Below, in pieces: positions 29,809 to 37,025 of a stretch of 64,000 nt of DNA. Within the stretch, counting starts at the first letter, position 1. The number at the start of each line of letters is the position of its first letter. Position numbers and translations under genes: made by a program. The notes under the pieces are model-generated. The model was not told where the DNA came from and searched no databases. It was given only the letters and a program-made list of their open reading frames with translations. Source of the DNA: Hymenobacter psoromatis (GTDB lineage: Bacteria > Bacteroidota > Bacteroidia > Cytophagales > Hymenobacteraceae); the NCBI RefSeq assembly GCF_020012125.1, contig NZ_JAIFAG010000001.1, positions 1,178,001 through 1,242,000 on the forward strand, in the 5' to 3' direction.

Positions 29809-29860
29809 GCCCCCGCCCGTCAACGGTGCGTGCCTGTTTCGTTCAACGCCGGGCGGGGGC
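29809..29860. terminator. palindrome between convergent genes
   Basis: GCCCCCGCCCG (29809-29819) pairs with CGGGCGGGGGC (29850-29860), extended by CGGGG / CCCCG. The right arm lies inside the 3' end of the PAP2 gene and encodes its last residues. No T run, so termination is only possible, not sure. Confidence 0.45.
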
Positions 29861-30850
29861 AAACCCCGTATCCGACCGCGCTATAACCTGACTAGGCTTC
29901 TCTGGGAGTGTTATAGCCCGTAGGTAAGCCGCTATAAACCGCTGGAACAGGGCGCTTTTAGCCAGCAGCAGCTGAAAGAGGAAGATACTCGTCAGCGCCG
30001 TGGTAATGCCGGCCAGCACATCCAGCACGTAGTGGTGGCTGTTGTAGACGGCCGCGAACCAGATGCCCAGCATTACGGTCACAAAAAACAGGTTGAACCA
30101 GCCCAGGCGGCTCTTGATGGCGTAGTACAGCACCAGTACCGGGTAGGCCGAATGCATGGAGGGCATGGCCGCGAAAACGTTGGAATTCTTCTTATAGAGC
30201 GCCTCAAATAAGCTGATGCCGAAGTACTTATCGAAGCCGGCCAGGCCAGCCGTGCTGCCCACCGTGAGGGGCTGAAACCGCAGGCCATACTGCTGCACGT
30301 ACCACGGCGGCGCGGCCGGGTGCAGGTAATAAAGGACGAACCCGAACAGATTGGCCAGCAAGAAAGTCAGGGCAAACTCCAGAAACAGTCCGCGCCGGGT
30401 AAAATACAAATAGCCCGCGAAGAGTATCGGCACGGGTATCCAGCAGAGGTAGAAGGCCCCGGCCACCACGTCGAGCAGCGCAGACTTGTGTAAGAGCCAG
30501 AACTCGTTGGGTGTCAGGACCTGGCCGTGGTAGGAAATTCCGAACAGGCTTTTCTCCGTGAAATAAAGCGGGGCCACGTCCACCGCCCGGAAGGCGTAAT
30601 TGGGAAGCACCTTCATGTAATCGTACAAGACCCAATAAACCAGGAAGATGGAATACCCGGTGATGAGCCGCCGCGTGACGCCGGACGCGAAGTAGCAGCC
30701 ATTGACCAGCACTACCAGTACCAACTGCTCGGAGTGGAAGCCCAGCAGCCGGTAGGAAAGCAGCGCGTAGGCCAGCGTAAAGGCCGGCACGAGCCAGGTA
30801 GCAGCGGTGCGACGGGCGGGGCGGGTCGCGTCGGGGGGGGTAGCAAGCAT
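29843..30850 (-). CDS. PAP2-superfamily membrane protein, Aur1-like (candidate inositol phosphorylceramide synthase)
   Basis: 335 residues, about eight transmembrane helices. PAP2 motifs are C2 MPSMHSAYP (229-237, His233) and C3 YNSHHYVLD (269-277, His273, Asp277); the segment YYLHPAAPPWYVQQYG before them is typical of the PAP2_3/Aur1 group, which moves a phosphoinositol head group from phosphatidylinositol to ceramide in eukaryotes. Bacteroidota make sphingolipids, so inositol phosphorylceramide is a plausible product. It is the last gene of the inositol-lipid operon, 32 bases after the CDP-alcohol phosphotransferase gene. A simple lipid phosphatase role is the main alternative. The fold is sure; the substrate is inference from context. 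Confidence 0.82.
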   Translation of the reverse strand: MLATPPDATRPARRTAATWLVPAFTLAYALLSYRLLGFHSEQLVLVVLVNGCYFASGVTRRLITGYSIFLVYWVLYDYMKVLPNYAFRAVDVAPLYFTEKSLFGISYHGQVLTPNEFWLLHKSALLDVVAGAFYLCWIPVPILFAGYLYFTRRGLFLEFALTFLLANLFGFVLYYLHPAAPPWYVQQYGLRFQPLTVGSTAGLAGFDKYFGISLFEALYKKNSNVFAAMPSMHSAYPVLVLYYAIKSRLGWFNLFFVTVMLGIWFAAVYNSHHYVLDVLAGITTALTSIFLFQLLLAKSALFQRFIAAYLRAITLPEKPSQVIARSDTGFAPARR

Positions 30851-30882
30851 AAGCAGCGAAAGGGGGGTAGGGCCGGGCGGCG

Positions 30883-32166
30883 CTACACGGTCAGGCGCTT
30901 GGACACGGGCGCGTGGGTGGCGGTATTCAGCCCTTGCAGCTCAATGTAGCGGACATTGGGTACCCAGAACGTGCCACCCTCGATGCGCAGGTACACGCGC
31001 TCCAGCTGAATCTGGGTGTTGGCCACGGTCACGAACACGTGAAAGGTGTTGTCGGAGCCGGACTTCATGAGGTAGAGCGGTATTTTGCCATAGGCGGCAA
31101 ATTTAAGCTCGTATTTATTTGGAGCTAACTTCTTGGAAGTAAAACCGTAGGCAAAGTGGCGCTGAATAAAATTCAGCGGCTTGCGCTGGCCCTGCTCCTG
31201 GTAGCGCAGCCAGAAAATGTTGATGGGCTCGTCCTCGTTTAGCTGCCCGGCCTCGTTCACATTCAGCTGGTAAACCACCGTGTTGGTATTGGGGTCGCGC
31301 TGCAAATAAAAGAGCTGGTGCGCAATGCCGCTGGGCACCGGAAACGTGAGCATGGGCTGCGGCTGCTGCGGAGCCGCTTCCAGCGCTAAGCTGCTGCACA
31401 GCAAGCCAATAAGTAGTGCCGCCGCCGCCTGGGAGGGGGGTAGGGATACGGCCGCCGCGGCTTCCCGTGCGTGTAGCGCTTGCTTGGCCTGGCGCAGGCG
31501 CGCTACGGCCGTGATGTTGGCCAGCAGGGCCAGCACCGCAATCGGAAATGTCAGAATCGACATCGTTTCAAACACGTGAAACGGGATGCCCGGCACGAAC
31601 AGCTTGTAGTCGCCGCCCAGCCAGGCCGAGCTAACGCCGCAGGCCAACGCGCTCACACCCAGCAAAACAACCCGCTCGGGGCGCTGCATCAGGCCGCCCT
31701 TGCACTCCACGCCCAGGCCTTCGGCGCGGGCGCGGGTGTAGCTCACCATCATCGAGCCGATGAGGGCAATGAACGCGCACAGCGAGCCCAGCAAGTAGTG
31801 ATGCGCCACCAGGTAGTAGCAGATACCCATGAAGGTAAATAGCTCGCTATACCGGTCCAGTACCGAGTCGAACAGCGCGCCGTACGTGCTTTTCATGTTG
31901 CCGAGCCGTGCCACCTGCCCATCGAGCATATCGAACAAGCCCGCGAACAGGATGAGTGCGCCGCCCCAACCCACGTAGCGCAGGTCGCCGCGGTTGCCCT
32001 CCTCGCCACCCACGATAAACAGCACTGCTACCCCCACATTCAGCCCAAAGCCGGTAAGCGTCACCGCGTTGGGTGTGAAGCCCAGCCGAATCAGCAGCCG
32101 CACAAACGGATTGATAATCTTATAGATACCGCCTTGCAGCGCGGTGCGGAGGGCATCGAATGTCAT
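30883..32166 (-). CDS. CDP-alcohol phosphotransferase fused to a DUF4833-like domain (candidate phosphatidylinositol-phosphate synthase)
   Basis: 427 residues from the ATG at 32166 (MTFDALRTALQGGIYKI); a TTG start 8 codons upstream would overlap the previous gene. Residues 5-230 are a membrane CDP-alcohol phosphotransferase with the full motif: Asp79, Asp82-Gly83, Ala86-Arg87, Gly96, Asp100 and Asp104 (DMLDGQVARLG, YGALFDSVLDR). After a Leu-rich signal-like stretch (residues 247-264, AAAALLIGLLCSSLALEA), residues 275-427 form a second domain, LFYLQRDPNTNTVVYQLNVN, INIFWLRYQEQGQRKPLNFI, FAYGFTS, which I recognise as DUF4833-like. That domain would be periplasmic. With inositol-3-phosphate synthase in the operon, the likely reaction is CDP-diacylglycerol plus inositol-3-phosphate to phosphatidylinositol phosphate. 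The domain junction carries CCCTACCCCCC. Confidence 0.85.
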   Translation of the reverse strand: MTFDALRTALQGGIYKIINPFVRLLIRLGFTPNAVTLTGFGLNVGVAVLFIVGGEEGNRGDLRYVGWGGALILFAGLFDMLDGQVARLGNMKSTYGALFDSVLDRYSELFTFMGICYYLVAHHYLLGSLCAFIALIGSMMVSYTRARAEGLGVECKGGLMQRPERVVLLGVSALACGVSSAWLGGDYKLFVPGIPFHVFETMSILTFPIAVLALLANITAVARLRQAKQALHAREAAAAVSLPPSQAAAALLIGLLCSSLALEAAPQQPQPMLTFPVPSGIAHQLFYLQRDPNTNTVVYQLNVNEAGQLNEDEPINIFWLRYQEQGQRKPLNFIQRHFAYGFTSKKLAPNKYELKFAAYGKIPLYLMKSGSDNTFHVFVTVANTQIQLERVYLRIEGGTFWVPNVRYIELQGLNTATHAPVSKRLTV

Positions 32167-32179
32167 GCAAATCAGCGCG

Positions 32180-34750
32180 TTAAAAATCAAACTTAAACCG
32201 GCCCCGGATGCCCCACTCCGCCACGTTGGGGTTGTCCAGGTACGTGAGGCGGCGCACCAGGTCCACCCGAAACAGCTTAAAAATATTAGCCAAACCTACG
32301 CTGGCCTCGGCGTAGGGCTGGCTGCCCAGCGAGAACGCGATGGGCTGGCCCCGGCCCAGGTCGGCGCGCAGGAACTCGAATAGCTCGGGGTGCAGGGCGG
32401 GGTTGTTCTGGTCGCGCAGGCCACCGTAGAGCAGCTTCAGGGAGGCTACTTCGCGCAGCTTGAGCCGCCGCAGCAGGGGTAGCTTATTGAAGATGAAGCC
32501 GTTGAAATTATGGTCCAGGAACAGGCTGGCGTAGTGGTCGCTCGAAAACTCCAGAAAGTTCATCAGGTTGTACGACTGGAGCTGGTACGAAAACGTTTGG
32601 TTGGCGCGGTGAATGTCGAGCAATGGAAACGGCACCTGCCCGAACAGGTTACCTGCTTCAAACGTCACGTCGGTGTGGCCTAGCTGCGAGAAGTAAAACC
32701 GCTTGCTGAAGTTGAAAACCAGGTTTTGATACGTATACTCGCCGCCCAGCACACCCTTAAAACCCGCGTTGAGAACGAGGGTATAAATGGGCGCGGGGCT
32801 GATAATGGGCGTGCGGTAAAGCTTGCCCTGGTAAAATTTCTCGCGCGGGGCCCAGCGTAGCGTCAGGCCCAGCTCGGTGGTGCGCAGGCCACTAATCACG
32901 TGCTCCTCCCCACCCACGTAGTTGCGAAAATACAGGCCGCCAGCCGGGCTTTGCAGCCAGTTTTTGAAGCCCAGCGCGTAGGAAAAATGGTTGTTGAACT
33001 CGTGCAGGTAATCGAGGCGCGCAATATCGTTGTACAAATACTTGTCATTCAGCCCGCGCTTGAAGGAAAGCAGGAAGTTATCCTCCTGCACGAATTGCAG
33101 CTCCTGCCCCGGAATCTTGGTGTCGCGCTGAAAACTAGCTCGGATAAAGTTCTGCGGAAACGTGTAAATCGACTTATTATTAAGCGAATACGTCGAGCTG
33201 AAGAAGTACTTCCACTTCTCGTCTTTAAAGCCGTAGGCCCCGTAGGTTTCGAAATAAATGCGCTTGCTGAAGTCCGGTGTCGTCCTACCCCCCACCCGCA
33301 GCCGGAAGCCCTCCACCGGGTTGAAGCTGTAAAAAGTATTGGACGGCCCCACGTCAATCGGCCCGAACGCCTTATAGCCCGAAAACAGGAACGTAGCCAG
33401 CGTGAGCGTGCGCTGAAACGACTTGATAGTCTGGAGGGTATCGATGTTTTTGTAAATCGTGCGCTCGGTCAGCGTCAGGCTATCGGGCCGGTTGCGCTGC
33501 CAGTAGGCCAGGCCGCGGCCGGCGCTACTATCGGCCACCACCACCGCCGGGCCGGCGTAGAGGCTATCCGGCTCAGGCTGCCCAATGCGGTACTTCTCAT
33601 AGATGACCGTGCGCTCGCCAAAAAAGCCGGAGCCCTTCTGCGTCAGGCCAAACTCAATGTCGAGCACGCTCTTGCGCAGGTGGTAGCGCCGGTCGGGGTT
33701 CAGGGCAAACTCCAGGCTGGCACTGAAGTTCTTTACCAGGTTGAGGTTGATGCGCTTATCTACCCCCAACTCGGCGCGCTGCACGGCGTAGTTGCCATCC
33801 ATTGTCACGTAGAGCTTGCCTGTGAAGAGCAAATCGCCGCGGTTACGCGGCCCAAAGCTCAGCTCGATGAGTTGCGGCACATGCTCCTTGAGCGTGTCGG
33901 TGATGTAGTACTGGTAAAACGTGGGGCCGCCGTTGGCAATCGGGCTCAGCAGCTGGTTGCCGAGCAGGCTCACGTTATTATCGTAGATGTTGATGTCCTG
34001 ATACATCCGGTTGAAGTAGGTGCTCAGGCCATCATTATCAATAAAATGCTTGTCGAATTGCACCTGCTTGCTACCCAGCACCACGGTTTTGAGCGCGGGT
34101 GGGTCCTTGCGGTAGTACTCCCGCGCCAGCTTTTCTTCCAGGTACACCGGCAAAATGTTCACCCCGCCCACCGCCGTTGAGTCCTGCTGCTTGAACAGGA
34201 ACTGGTAGTTGCGAAATATCTTCTTATTCTTAAATTTCTCGGATAAGTTGCTGAAGGAGAAGGCCATCTTCTCGTATTTCTCATATTCTACGTAGGGGTA
34301 GCTCTCGGGCTGGTTTTCGGCGCGGTGGGCAATAATCTGCCGGATAAGCTCCACGGCGGGGTTATCCTTGTTCTTGTAGCGCGGCGGCTTGATACCCTTG
34401 ATAACCACCTCGTTGAGCTGCGCCGAGGTGGTCGCCAGCTGCACGCTCAATTCTACCGGTGCGCCGGGCACGAAGGTGCGCGTCACCGGCCGGTAGCCCA
34501 GGTAGGTAAAAATCAGGGTGTTGTACTGCGCCGGCACTTGCAGCGTGAAGCGCCCTTGCTCGTCAGTATTAACCCCAATGGTAGTTTGCGGCACGGCCAC
34601 GCTCACGAAGGGTAGCTTCTCTTTCGTCCGGGCATCGGTCACTACTCCCCGCACGGTAGTCGTCTGGGCCAGGATTGGTCCCGCCAGCAGCAGCAATAGC
34701 CCGAGCAGCCCCACCGGCCCCCAAAGGTCACTATGCCAACGCCTTATCAT
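32180..34750 (-). CDS. large outer membrane protein with carboxypeptidase-regulatory-like and DUF5686 domains
   Basis: 856 residues. Signal peptide to about residue 28 (LLGLLLLLAGPILAQ). Residues 30-115 are a CarboxypepD_reg-like beta-sandwich (TTVRGVVTDARTKEKLPFVS, GVNTDEQGRFTL). The rest is the DUF5686 region, with a C-terminal beta-barrel rich in alternating aromatic strands and ending WGIRGRFKFDF, the C-terminal Phe of outer membrane proteins. The ATG overlaps the GtrA stop codon by 4 bases, and its end is 13 bases before the CDP-alcohol phosphotransferase ATG, so it is firmly inside the operon. Function is unknown; a role in placing or exporting inositol lipids in the outer membrane is a guess from context. 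Confidence 0.88.
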   Translation of the reverse strand: MIRRWHSDLWGPVGLLGLLLLLAGPILAQTTTVRGVVTDARTKEKLPFVSVAVPQTTIGVNTDEQGRFTLQVPAQYNTLIFTYLGYRPVTRTFVPGAPVELSVQLATTSAQLNEVVIKGIKPPRYKNKDNPAVELIRQIIAHRAENQPESYPYVEYEKYEKMAFSFSNLSEKFKNKKIFRNYQFLFKQQDSTAVGGVNILPVYLEEKLAREYYRKDPPALKTVVLGSKQVQFDKHFIDNDGLSTYFNRMYQDINIYDNNVSLLGNQLLSPIANGGPTFYQYYITDTLKEHVPQLIELSFGPRNRGDLLFTGKLYVTMDGNYAVQRAELGVDKRINLNLVKNFSASLEFALNPDRRYHLRKSVLDIEFGLTQKGSGFFGERTVIYEKYRIGQPEPDSLYAGPAVVVADSSAGRGLAYWQRNRPDSLTLTERTIYKNIDTLQTIKSFQRTLTLATFLFSGYKAFGPIDVGPSNTFYSFNPVEGFRLRVGGRTTPDFSKRIYFETYGAYGFKDEKWKYFFSSTYSLNNKSIYTFPQNFIRASFQRDTKIPGQELQFVQEDNFLLSFKRGLNDKYLYNDIARLDYLHEFNNHFSYALGFKNWLQSPAGGLYFRNYVGGEEHVISGLRTTELGLTLRWAPREKFYQGKLYRTPIISPAPIYTLVLNAGFKGVLGGEYTYQNLVFNFSKRFYFSQLGHTDVTFEAGNLFGQVPFPLLDIHRANQTFSYQLQSYNLMNFLEFSSDHYASLFLDHNFNGFIFNKLPLLRRLKLREVASLKLLYGGLRDQNNPALHPELFEFLRADLGRGQPIAFSLGSQPYAEASVGLANIFKLFRVDLVRRLTYLDNPNVAEWGIRGRFKFDF

Positions 34751-35130
34751 TTTCTAAATACAAAATAGAGCTGCAAAAAATAGTTAAACCCGATGCCTAC
34801 CACCAGCGATACCAGCACTTTGCTAGCCAGGTAATTGACGTGCAATCCTTGGGTAAACACATAAACGCCCCCGGCGTTCAATCCCATACTGCCTAGCCAC
34901 ACTAAAAAATAGCGCCCGCCCTGCGCTGACGCCTGCTGGTTCGGGGCCTGAAACACATAGTGCCGCCCCAGGTAAAAATTAACCAGGCCCCCGGCCGCGT
35001 TGCCCAGCGCCGTGGCCAGCAAATACCAGCTGTGCAGCCCCTCCACCAGCGCGACGGTGACCAGGAAATCGACGGCCGTGCCGGTCGCGGCGGCGGCCTG
35101 CGCCCGCAAAAACCGATGGGTGCCCGCCAC
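34747..35130 (-). CDS. GtrA-family membrane protein
   Basis: 127 residues, four transmembrane helices, GTG start (VAGTHRFLRAQAAAATGTAV). GtrA signatures: VDFLVTVALVEGL, LGNAAGGLVNFYLGRHYVF and the end GIGFNYFLQLYFVFRK. Family members are thought to take part in transfer of polyprenyl-linked sugars across the inner membrane. In this operon it could help add or flip a sugar on an inositol lipid; this is inference. It begins 4 bases after the PgpA stop and overlaps the next gene by ATGA. Confidence 0.88.
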   Translation of the reverse strand: MAGTHRFLRAQAAAATGTAVDFLVTVALVEGLHSWYLLATALGNAAGGLVNFYLGRHYVFQAPNQQASAQGGRYFLVWLGSMGLNAGGVYVFTQGLHVNYLASKVLVSLVVGIGFNYFLQLYFVFRK

Positions 35131-35134
35131 GCGC

Positions 35135-35584
35135 CTAGAGGTAGCCCCGCCGCACGCCGGCCCGTAGCAGCAGGTTAGTATAGAGGCCGGCCAGCACGTC
35201 GTCCATCATCACGCCCGCGCCGCCCGGCAGCTTCTCCATATCTCTGATAAATAAGGGTTTGGCGATATCAAAATACCGAAAAAGCACTAGCCCGGCCAGC
35301 AGGCGCAGTCCCGTCACGGGTACGCCCAGCATACTCACCCACATCCCCGCCACTTCGTCAAGCACGACCCGCGAGCTGTCTTTGCCCCACTCGGGCTCCA
35401 CGCGCTCGGCCGCCAGCGTGCCGCCGGCCAGCAGAGCCAGCGTAAGGCCGGCCGCCGGCCAGGGCCGGTGCGTGGAGCCGCTGGCGCGGCTCAGGTACAG
35501 GGCCAGGCCGCAGGCCGCCGCCGCTACTGTGCCGCCGCCCTTCACGTACCCGATGCCCAGCACGCTGGCAAATTGCTTGAACAC
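35135..35584 (-). CDS. pgpA: PgpA-family phosphatase (candidate phosphatidylinositol-phosphate phosphatase)
   Basis: 149 residues with a GTG start. PgpA motifs: GIGYVKGGGTVAA, VVLDEVAGMW (Asp76, Glu77), FRYFDIAKPLF (Asp106, Lys109) and GGAGVMMDDVLAGLY (Asp128, Asp129). PgpA normally removes the phosphate of phosphatidylglycerophosphate in the inner membrane. Its place between inositol-3-phosphate synthase and GtrA suggests it acts on phosphatidylinositol phosphate instead, as has been reported for a PgpA homologue in Bacteroides thetaiotaomicron; the substrate here is inference. Symbol by homology only. Confidence 0.88.
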   Translation of the reverse strand: MFKQFASVLGIGYVKGGGTVAAAACGLALYLSRASGSTHRPWPAAGLTLALLAGGTLAAERVEPEWGKDSSRVVLDEVAGMWVSMLGVPVTGLRLLAGLVLFRYFDIAKPLFIRDMEKLPGGAGVMMDDVLAGLYTNLLLRAGVRRGYL

Positions 35585-35705
35585 TTGGTTGATGATTAGA
35601 AGGGTTTGGGGGTAGGAGGATGGGAGGGTAGGGGAGCCGCCGGTAAGAGAAAGGACTTTTTAACTGAATTTTTCTACCTCCCCCTTTCCCTGCTACCTCC
35701 AAACC

Positions 35706-37025
35706 CTACGCTGCTGGGCCATCTTGGTACGCCTCCTCGCTGGCGGCGGTCACGGGCTCCTCGCCCATGAGCAGGCGCAGGGTGTTGTGCAAGGTCACGT
35801 ACTGCTTGAAAATGTCGTGCTCGGGCCGCAGGCCGGGCTCGGTTTGGGGTGATTTGAGGTAGAACGAGAGCCATTCCTGCACGCCCGACATGCCAGCGCG
35901 CTTGGCCAAATCCATAAACAAGGCTAGGTCGAGCACCAGCGGGGCGGCCAGGATGGAATCGCGGCAGAGGAAGTTAATCTTAATCTGCATGGGGTAGCCC
36001 AGCCAGCCAAAGATGTCGATATTGTCCCAGCTCTCCTTGTTGTCGCCGGCGGGGGGGTAGTAGTTGATGCGCACCTTGTGGTACATATCGCCGTACAGCT
36101 CCGGGTTTTCCTCGGGGTGAAACACGCTGTCGAGCACGCTCAGCTTCGACACTTCCTTGGTACGGAAGTTATCGGGGTCGTCCAGCACCAGGCCGTCGCG
36201 GTTACCCAAAATATTAGTGGAAAACCAGCCCTTCACGCCCAGCGAGCGCACGCTCAGGCCGGGGGCCAGAATGGTTTTCATCAGCGTCTGGCCGGTTTTG
36301 AAGTCCTTGCCGGCCACCGGCGTGCCAGTAGTAGCGGCCAGCTCCAGCAGGGCGGGCACGTCCACGGTCAGGTTGGGCGCGCCGTTCACGTAGGGCACGC
36401 CCTCGCGCAGGGCGGCGTAGGCGTATATCATGCTCGGCGCAATGTCGGCCGCATTGGCCTTCAGGCCCGCCTCAAAGTTGGCCAGCGTGCGGTGCGTGTC
36501 GCTCAGCTCATGGTAGATTTCCGTCGAGCCGCACCACACCATCACCAGGCGGCTGCAACTGCGGGTGGCCTTGAATTGCCGGATATCGGCGATAACCTGC
36601 TCGGCCAGGTCGAGCTTGGTAGTGTAGGACTTCACGTGCGTTCCGTCCAGGTTTTTCACGTAGCGCGGGTCGAAGGCAGCCTTCATCGGTACCAGCGCCT
36701 CCATCTCGGCGCGCACGGGCTGCAAGGTCTTGTAATCCAGCACCCCGGCCTTCATCGCTGCCTCGTACACGTTGTCCTCATACACGTCCCAGCCCCCAAA
36801 CTCAATGTCATCGAGGCTCGGCAGCGGCACAAAGTCCTTGATTTTAAGATTACCGGTCGCGGTGCGGATTTTACCCATCTGCGTGAGCGAGCCGATAGGC
36901 TGGCCGCTGCCTTTGCGCACGGCTAGCACGCCCGCAATTAGCGTCGTAGCTACGGCTCCCATGCCGGGCAGCAGGATACCAAGTTTGCCTTCGGCCGGCG
37001 CGAGCGGTGCTTTTTGTTCTCTCAT
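35706..37025 (-). CDS. ino1: inositol-3-phosphate synthase
   Basis: 439 residues, the usual length of the bacterial type. NAD-dependent cyclisation of glucose-6-phosphate to 1L-myo-inositol 3-phosphate in the cytoplasm. Sequence marks: NAD-binding GKLGILLPGMGAVATTLIAG (13-32), LVMVWCGSTEIYHE, PYVNGAPNLTVDVPALLELA, the catalytic Lys block VAGKDFKTGQTLMKT (Lys240, Lys243), GWFSTNILGNRDG, and KINFLCRDSILAAPLVLDLA. First gene of the six-gene minus-strand operon, 121 bases before pgpA. Divergent from the GH92 gene. It supplies the head group for the downstream lipid enzymes. No inositol-catabolism genes are nearby, supporting a biosynthetic role. Confidence 0.95.
   Translation of the reverse strand: MREQKAPLAPAEGKLGILLPGMGAVATTLIAGVLAVRKGSGQPIGSLTQMGKIRTATGNLKIKDFVPLPSLDDIEFGGWDVYEDNVYEAAMKAGVLDYKTLQPVRAEMEALVPMKAAFDPRYVKNLDGTHVKSYTTKLDLAEQVIADIRQFKATRSCSRLVMVWCGSTEIYHELSDTHRTLANFEAGLKANAADIAPSMIYAYAALREGVPYVNGAPNLTVDVPALLELAATTGTPVAGKDFKTGQTLMKTILAPGLSVRSLGVKGWFSTNILGNRDGLVLDDPDNFRTKEVSKLSVLDSVFHPEENPELYGDMYHKVRINYYPPAGDNKESWDNIDIFGWLGYPMQIKINFLCRDSILAAPLVLDLALFMDLAKRAGMSGVQEWLSFYLKSPQTEPGLRPEHDIFKQYVTLHNTLRLLMGEEPVTAASEEAYQDGPAA

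What the first reader, a model, noticed from the sequence alone, without database searches (positions are those of the whole stretch)
29843..37025. Six-gene operon for inositol (sphingo)lipid synthesis inside a mannan locus
Seen: inositol-3-phosphate synthase, PgpA-like phosphatase, GtrA, DUF5686 outer membrane protein, CDP-alcohol phosphotransferase and Aur1-like PAP2 follow each other on one strand with overlaps or gaps of at most 121 bases. Known: inositol-3-phosphate synthase, a phosphatidylinositol-phosphate synthase and its phosphatase form a gene cluster for inositol lipids in Bacteroides thetaiotaomicron. Inference: this organism makes phosphatidylinositol and perhaps inositol phosphorylceramide, with two extra genes (GtrA, DUF5686) adding modification or outer membrane placement.
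Basis: partly seen in the sequence, partly recalled or inferred. Interest (0 to 1): 0.88.

Follow-up and report, generated by a model that had tools for sequence, protein, structure and literature searches.

The report
Inositol-lipid operon without ceramide genes
A Hymenobacter bacterium carries a six-gene operon that likely makes phosphatidylinositol and is predicted to pass inositol lipids on towards its outer membrane, while searches of its genome found no serine palmitoyltransferase, the usual first enzyme on the way to the ceramide that the operon's last enzyme would be expected to use.

Summary
The six genes are real, contiguous and on one strand. Five are the known Bacteroides thetaiotaomicron BT1522-1526 set in the same order, so GtrA is not an extra gene; the sixth is DUF5686. 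20 of 120 genomes of the genus carry the PIP synthase; in 8 of 11 loci mapped the block lies outside the mannan setting, which is therefore incidental. In 80 loci chosen by likeness of the PIP synthase, DUF5686 is in 77 and DUF4833 in 73, so both belong to the system. DUF5686's barrel models as Omp85-like. In 74 non-Hymenobacter carriers the fetched stretch also holds serine palmitoyltransferase (53), a GNAT enzyme (51), an SDR (43) and a fatty-acid hydroxylase (52), all four together in 35: an apparently complete inositol-sphingolipid cluster. None of 120 Hymenobacter genomes, the window's included, has that palmitoyltransferase; yet the AUR1-like enzyme keeps its active-site motifs. So phosphatidylinositol is well supported, home-made inositol phosphorylceramide is not, and the last enzyme's acceptor is open. 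Known kind, new variant.

The parts
35706..37025 (-). inositol-3-phosphate synthase (MIPS), 439 aa, likely first gene of the operon
   Evidence: Pfam NAD_binding_5 332 bits and Inos-1-P_synth 112 bits; best solved relative 7nwr, 570 bits; only Inos-1-P_synth match in the genome
35135..35584 (-). PgpA-family phosphatase, 149 aa, likely PIP-DAG phosphatase as proposed for BT_1525
   Evidence: PF04608 117 bits; function by position and by the BT_1525 mutant (PMC9246714 section 6)
34747..35130 (-). GtrA-family membrane protein, 127 aa, position of BT_1524; possible flippase or partner, role unknown
   Evidence: PF04138 65.7 bits
32180..34750 (-). CarboxypepD_reg-like plus DUF5686 protein, 856 aa, predicted outer-membrane protein
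   Evidence: PF13715 66 bits, PF18939 167 bits; AlphaFold mean pLDDT 78.5
32186..33367 (-). part of DUF5686 (residues 462-855) modelled as an Omp85-like barrel
30883..32190 (-). PIP synthase fused to DUF4833, 435 aa
   Evidence: NF052561 384.8 bits over cut-off 350; DUF4833 155.9 bits; model mean pLDDT 89.0
31459..32148 (-). PIP-synthase domain (residues 15-244) with motif D87xxDGxxAR...G104xxxDxxxD112
31375..31428 (-). hydrophobic segment (about residues 255-272) between the two domains; predicted extra membrane helix or internal signal peptide
   Evidence: such a segment (15-residue mean hydropathy at least 1.6) in 46 of 48 fused rows, duplicates not removed
30895..31311 (-). DUF4833 domain (residues 294-432), predicted periplasmic beta domain
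   Evidence: PF16117; mostly strands in the model, block pLDDT 87-98 from residue 291 on
29843..30850 (-). AUR1-like PAP2_3 phosphoinositol transferase, 335 aa
   Evidence: PF14378 84 bits; solved AUR1 chains E 1.5e-16 and 2.2e-16; NF052609 322.6 bits, below its cut-off 480; PSMHS and HHYVLD motifs present

Best explanation
The six genes form one conserved block that likely makes phosphatidylinositol in the inner membrane and is predicted to modify and export inositol lipids, in a genome where searches found no serine palmitoyltransferase and so no known start of the route to the ceramide its last enzyme would be expected to use. [quoted passage not shown] the PIP synthase joins it to CDP-diacylglycerol; the PgpA-type enzyme removes the extra phosphate, as proposed from the BT_1525 mutant. 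The AUR1-like PAP2 enzyme would then move phosphoinositol from phosphatidylinositol onto a second lipid. In most other carriers that acceptor is probably ceramide, because ceramide genes sit in the same stretch. In Hymenobacter it must be imported ceramide, ceramide from an unrecognised enzyme, or another lipid. DUF4833 (placed in the periplasm by its segment) and DUF5686 (Omp85-like barrel) would form the route to the outer membrane, with GtrA a likely inner-membrane helper. Shown here: the genes, their order, the fusion, their conservation as a unit, the ceramide-gene pattern and the intact motifs. Not shown: any lipid product or any transport.
For: Same order as BT1522-1526. PIP-synthase cut-off passed and motif invariant in ten relatives; PIP synthases are the top structural matches. 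The six genes lie as a block in 11 Hymenobacter loci, 8 of them with none of the window's flanking genes (in L058 the PIP synthase is split and MIPS short). DUF5686 in 77 of 80 and DUF4833 in 73 of 80 related loci. SPT over the curated cut-off in 65 of 74 distinct non-Hymenobacter genomes with the PIP-synthase locus, in 53 of these 65 inside the same fetched stretch, against 0 of 120 Hymenobacter genomes. FA_hydroxylase gene in the stretch in 51 of the 65 with SPT and 1 of the 9 without. The window genome's two nearest SPT look-alikes are a glycine C-acetyltransferase (704.8 bits, cut-off 493) and a SulA/cysteate acyltransferase-like protein (580 bits to 7u7h, 240 to SPT 3a2b; Lys where five SPTs have Ala). 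Omp85-like barrel.
Against: No lipid data for this strain. NF052609 cut-off not met by the window's AUR1-like protein. GNAT and SDR absences rest on scores and are less sharp than the SPT absence (SPT-less G577 has a 169-bit GNAT hit, in the range of SPT carriers; SPT carriers G379 and G518 also lack the SDR). Six of the nine SPT-less non-Hymenobacter genomes are MAGs, where a gene may simply be missing from the assembly (titles). Omp85 signature motif missing in 50 of 51 DUF5686 sequences. Deleting GtrA in B. theta had no TLC effect in one study and lowered IPC in another. No solved match tells what DUF4833 binds. DUF4833 also occurs alone, away from inositol genes.
Confidence: 0.7

Rival explanations
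1. The strain makes inositol phosphorylceramide as B. theta does, with ceramide taken from its surroundings or made by an unrecognised enzyme.
For: The AUR1-like protein keeps the motifs seen in SPT carriers (24 of 24 SPT-less rows, 63 of 64 SPT rows), and only 3 alignment columns separate the two sets at the 70% level; in the AUR1 tree the Hymenobacter rows nest beside SPT carriers (branches 92-94, not starred).
Against: No SPT over cut-off in any of 120 Hymenobacter genomes; in the window's genome the best GNAT and SDR matches are weak (98.9 and 38.8 bits), and the nearest fatty-acid hydroxylase is 30% identical against 57-67% for four operon copies.
Confidence: 0.25
2. Only phosphatidylinositol is made; the AUR1-like gene is a passenger kept because the block was acquired whole.
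For: SPT missing and other ceramide genes weak or missing; the block is patchy in the genus (20 of 120) with changing flanks.
Against: Active-site motifs are intact in 24 of 24 SPT-less rows, and an AUR1-like gene is kept in the 11 Hymenobacter loci mapped and in the 8 SPT-less loci from other lineages used in the tree.
Confidence: 0.2
3. The operon serves the neighbouring mannan locus, for example an inositol-containing glycan.
For: GH26, GH43-type, GH92 and SusC-like genes flank it; inositol was found in B. theta capsule (PMC9246714 passage).
Against: Only the window and L052 share both flanks and L053 one flank (its other side is off the contig); the other 8 of 11 Hymenobacter loci lie elsewhere.
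Confidence: 0.05
4. DUF5686 is an assembly factor for one outer-membrane protein, not a lipid exporter.
For: BamA, Sam50 and TamA are the nearest solved folds, and the first two are protein insertases (recalled).
Against: In the gene maps its steady neighbours are lipid enzymes; other outer-membrane protein genes were not systematically looked for.
Confidence: 0.3

Closest known systems
B. thetaiotaomicron BT1522-1526 inositol-lipid operon (PMC9246714, PMC8791184)
   Same: MIPS, PgpA-type phosphatase, GtrA, PIP synthase and AUR1-like gene in the same order
   Different: DUF5686 between GtrA and PIP synthase; DUF4833 fused to the PIP synthase; no SPT found in the genome; AUR1-like protein below the NF052609 cut-off
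SPT-bearing inositol loci of Pontibacter, Pedobacter, Mucilaginibacter, Dyadobacter, Chitinophagaceae and others (found here)
   Same: same inositol core with DUF5686 and usually DUF4833
   Different: they add SPT, GNAT, often an SDR and usually a fatty-acid hydroxylase; three also a desaturase; some lack PgpA or MIPS in the stretch
Actinobacterial PIP synthases (5d92, 6h5a, 6wmv)
   Same: fold and catalytic motif; 31-33% identity over about 200 residues
   Different: no DUF4833 match in solved chains
Omp85 superfamily (BamA, TamA, Sam50)
   Different: signature RG(F/Y/W) motif not found in 50 of 51; CarboxypepD_reg-like domain at the N-terminus; POTRA repeats not shown

Membership tests
BT1522-1526 type inositol-lipid operon | MIPS, PgpA, GtrA, PIP synthase, AUR1-like in this order | tested here: met
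   one extra gene (DUF5686) inserted
BT1522-1526 type inositol-lipid operon | PIP synthase of the BT_1523 equivalog with DX2DGX2AR...GX3DX3D | tested here: met
   384.8 bits, cut-off 350; motif
BT1522-1526 type inositol-lipid operon | AUR1-like protein over the NF052609 phosphoinositol dihydroceramide synthase cut-off | tested here: not met
   322.6 bits, cut-off 480; L084 passes with 570.8
BT1522-1526 type inositol-lipid operon | serine palmitoyltransferase in the genome | tested here: not met
   best 353.7 bits, cut-off 640; 0 of 120 in the genus
Inositol phosphorylceramide synthase (AUR1) | PAP2-type His/His/Asp active-site motifs (motif names recalled) | tested here: met
   NVFAAMPSMHS and HHYVLD aligned with the same motifs in SPT carriers and in L083, L084
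Inositol phosphorylceramide synthase (AUR1) | ceramide as acceptor | not testable with these tools
   needs lipid analysis or an enzyme assay
PIP synthase | uses inositol-3-phosphate and CDP-diacylglycerol | not testable with these tools
   sequence and model favour it over PgsA and PssA
Omp85 superfamily | Omp85-type beta-barrel | tested here: met
   predicted model only; all 50 rows shown are Omp85-type or their complexes
Omp85 superfamily | (V/I/L)RG(F/Y/W) signature in the barrel region (motif recalled) | tested here: not met
   1 of 51 sequences; so it is not filed as a member, only as Omp85-like
Omp85 superfamily | periplasmic POTRA repeats | tested here: inconclusive
   rows mostly cover residues 462-855

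The most novel reading that the evidence does not exclude
The operon is a dedicated assembly line across the cell envelope: a PIP synthase that carries its own periplasmic DUF4833 domain hands inositol lipids to DUF5686, an Omp85-like lipid insertase of the outer membrane; in Hymenobacter, which lost or never had the ceramide genes, the AUR1-like enzyme puts phosphoinositol on a non-sphingoid acceptor and so makes an unknown class of inositol lipid.
Probability: 0.22. Interest if true: 0.88.

Novelty: new variant of a known kind. Interest (0 to 1): 0.62.

Why it matters
How Bacteroidota move sphingo- and inositol lipids to the outer membrane is, to my knowledge, unknown (recalled). Two uncharacterised families, DUF5686 and DUF4833, are nearly constant partners of the PIP synthase in the 80 loci mapped (77 and 73), which gives direct candidates to delete. 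The extended loci put serine palmitoyltransferase, candidate ceramide synthase and reductase, hydroxylase, in three cases a desaturase, and the IPC-synthase-like gene in one place, where a paper (PMC11334938, passage) says spt, bCerS and cerR were observed not to be in close proximity in sphingolipid-producing Bacteroidota. The SPT-less version asks what an IPC-synthase-like enzyme does without home-made ceramide.

Tried and rejected
Standalone DUF4833 as a guide to function: in the 13 Hymenobacter loci mapped it sits in settings with none of the inositol genes, so context gave no role. A solved relative of DUF4833: none by sequence at E 1 or less; Foldseek and VIA lists for the fused model are filled by the PIP-synthase part, so its fold stays untested. 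Distinct acceptor specificity of SPT-less AUR1-like proteins: only three conservative column differences and no single SPT-less clade (6 changes on the tree). BT_1527 as DUF5686: PMC9246714 calls it carboxypeptidase-regulatory-like; I did not fetch that locus, and two loci with the plain five-gene order, L083 and L084, lack DUF5686 in the cluster, so this is unsettled. GNAT as ceramide synthase: only PF00583, 32 bits, no NCBIfam match at 1e-10 and no PDB match; it was not compared with a characterised bCerS and stays a candidate. Promoters and terminators: promoter-like sites not above shuffles; terminator-like sites 16 against 9.6 +/- 4.0, and I read no operon end from them. Papers, searched in one open-access library: DUF4833 0, DUF5686 0; Hymenobacter with sphingolipid 11 listed, none on its lipids by title; Hymenobacter with phosphatidylinositol and polar lipids 1, on Olivibacter; other listings and passages (PMC10056535; PMC12724326) gave background only.
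Full report
What is there. Six ORFs run on the minus strand from 37025 down to 29843 with gaps of 121, 4 and 32 bases and overlaps of 4 and 11. Pfam and NCBIfam identify MIPS, PgpA, GtrA, CarboxypepD_reg-like plus DUF5686, CDP-alcohol phosphotransferase, and PAP2_3. The window lies in a 5.15 Mb, 99.96% complete genome. Its genus holds H. setariae: G461, labelled same genus, and L093 (Hymenobacter setariae) share a 1,598,499-base contig and the locus position, so the organism is a Hymenobacter by that grouping.

The known core. Heaver et al. (PMC9246714; outline, section 6 and passages seen) and Sartorio et al. (PMC8791184; passages seen) describe BT1522-1526 as AUR1-like, PIP synthase, GtrA, PgpA-type PIP phosphatase and MIPS, with mutants. 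Five of the six window genes are this set in this order. So GtrA is not an addition. Its mutant had unchanged inositol lipids by TLC in one paper, and less IPC and more PI in the other.

The fusion. In 35 of 80 related loci PIP synthase and DUF4833 are one ORF; in 38 more DUF4833 is a separate gene, as a rule the next one; in 7 it was not found. The linkers hold a hydrophobic stretch (46 of 48 fused rows at mean hydropathy 1.6 or more, lowest 1.57), and separate DUF4833 proteins have one near their start (54 of 57 at that level, lowest 1.45). Since the termini of CDP-alcohol phosphotransferases face the cytoplasm (recalled), this segment would place DUF4833 in the periplasm. In the genus, 22 further genomes have only a stand-alone DUF4833, in settings without the inositol genes in the 13 loci mapped, so the domain is not confined to inositol lipids.

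A mobile block. PIP synthase occurs in 20 of 120 genomes of the genus, fused to DUF4833 in one ORF in 19 and split over two frames in G509. In the 11 Hymenobacter loci mapped the six genes form one block, while flanking genes differ: the window and L052 share both sides of the mannan setting and L053 one side, its other side being off the contig; 8 of 11 share none of it. In the AUR1 tree the 16 Hymenobacter rows form one group (99, starred) beside L109 (92) and Arcticibacter-type Sphingobacteriaceae (94), away from Pontibacter and Rufibacter of the same family. This suggests horizontal arrival; those two branches are not starred.

The ceramide module. In many non-Hymenobacter loci more genes stand around the core on the same strand. 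Upstream of MIPS or PgpA stand SPT, a GNAT protein (54 of 56 loci with both ends seen) and an SDR (43 of 56). Between DUF4833 and the AUR1-like gene stands an FA_hydroxylase (50 loci; PF04116, 69-72 bits in three tested), and in L111, L118 and L122 also a desaturase, which in L111 and L122 (the two tested) carries the sphingolipid Delta4-desaturase domain PF08557. Over 74 distinct non-Hymenobacter genomes with the PIP-synthase locus, 65 have SPT above the curated cut-off and 9 do not; six of the nine are MAGs. In the fetched stretch SPT is found in 53 of the 74, GNAT in 51, SDR in 43, the hydroxylase in 52, and all four in 35, contig ends included among the misses. The hydroxylase is in 51 of the 65 with SPT and in 1 of the 9 without; that one, L155, is a MAG contig that begins inside MIPS. 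In G383 and G033 SPT, GNAT and SDR form a separate cluster, which supports their link with one another. Their roles as ceramide synthase and reductase are inferred from position and fold family. PMC11334938 (passages) states that the three genes were observed not to be close together in sphingolipid-producing Bacteroidota. Pedobacter species are treated as sphingolipid producers in PMC12724326 (passages).

What the window lacks. No Hymenobacter genome of 120 passes the SPT cut-off; the same search rings in Bacteroides ihuae among the controls and in 28 of 34 and 39 of 50 carrier genomes. The window genome's two nearest proteins are glycine C-acetyltransferase (704.8 bits, cut-off 493) and a SulA-like cysteate acyltransferase (580 bits to 7u7h; Lys in place of the SPT Ala; the residue rule is from the abstract of PMC9304779 and its passages, where SulA did not use serine). 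Its GNAT and SDR best hits are 98.9 and 38.8 bits. The 12 SPT carriers in those calls score 165-847 for GNAT, and 206-727 for SDR in 10 of 12 (G379 and G518 lack it). SPT-less carriers reach 169 bits for GNAT (G577), so that test is not sharp everywhere. Nearest fatty-acid hydroxylase: 30% identity. Yet the AUR1-like protein keeps both active-site motifs, as do all 24 SPT-less rows and 63 of 64 SPT rows (the miss is a split ORF, L133). A sulfonolipid has a sulfonate in place of the headgroup hydroxyl, so it is not an obvious acceptor (established chemistry).

Verdict. Phosphatidylinositol synthesis: likely. Inositol phosphorylceramide from home-made ceramide: not supported. DUF4833 and DUF5686 are steady partners of inositol-lipid synthesis in the Bacteroidota loci mapped, and export to the outer membrane is the most economical role, untested.

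Noticed in passing
L111:9911-10885, L118:6405-7382, L122:10890-11894: Desaturase next to the hydroxylase in three inositol-sphingolipid loci; the two tested (L111, L122) carry the sphingolipid Delta4-desaturase domain PF08557 (52.7 bits, cut-off 23).
   Followed up: partly
L125, L128, L131, L136, L141, L155, L156, L159, L160, L161: Mucilaginibacter loci without PgpA in the operon, so another enzyme would have to remove the PIP phosphate.
   Followed up: no
L145, L162, L166: Dyadobacter loci keep SPT, GNAT, SDR, PgpA and the rest but no MIPS was found in the stretch, as if inositol phosphate came from elsewhere.
   Followed up: no
L058:7920-9208: In one Hymenobacter (G509) the PIP-synthase-DUF4833 gene is split over two frames.
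   Followed up: no
L085, L086, L087: A two-gene version in one family (f27): a distant PIP synthase overlapping MIPS, without the other genes in the stretch.
   Followed up: no
L062-L071, L089-L091: Stand-alone secreted-looking DUF4833 genes, mostly in two recurrent settings of Hymenobacter without the inositol genes.
   Followed up: partly
L179 (G000:C1:1730111-1731244): SulA-like cysteate acyltransferase: the strain probably makes sulfonolipids.
   Followed up: partly
L083, L084: Plain five-gene loci without DUF5686 and DUF4833; L084's AUR1-like protein passes NF052609 (570.8 bits).
   Followed up: partly
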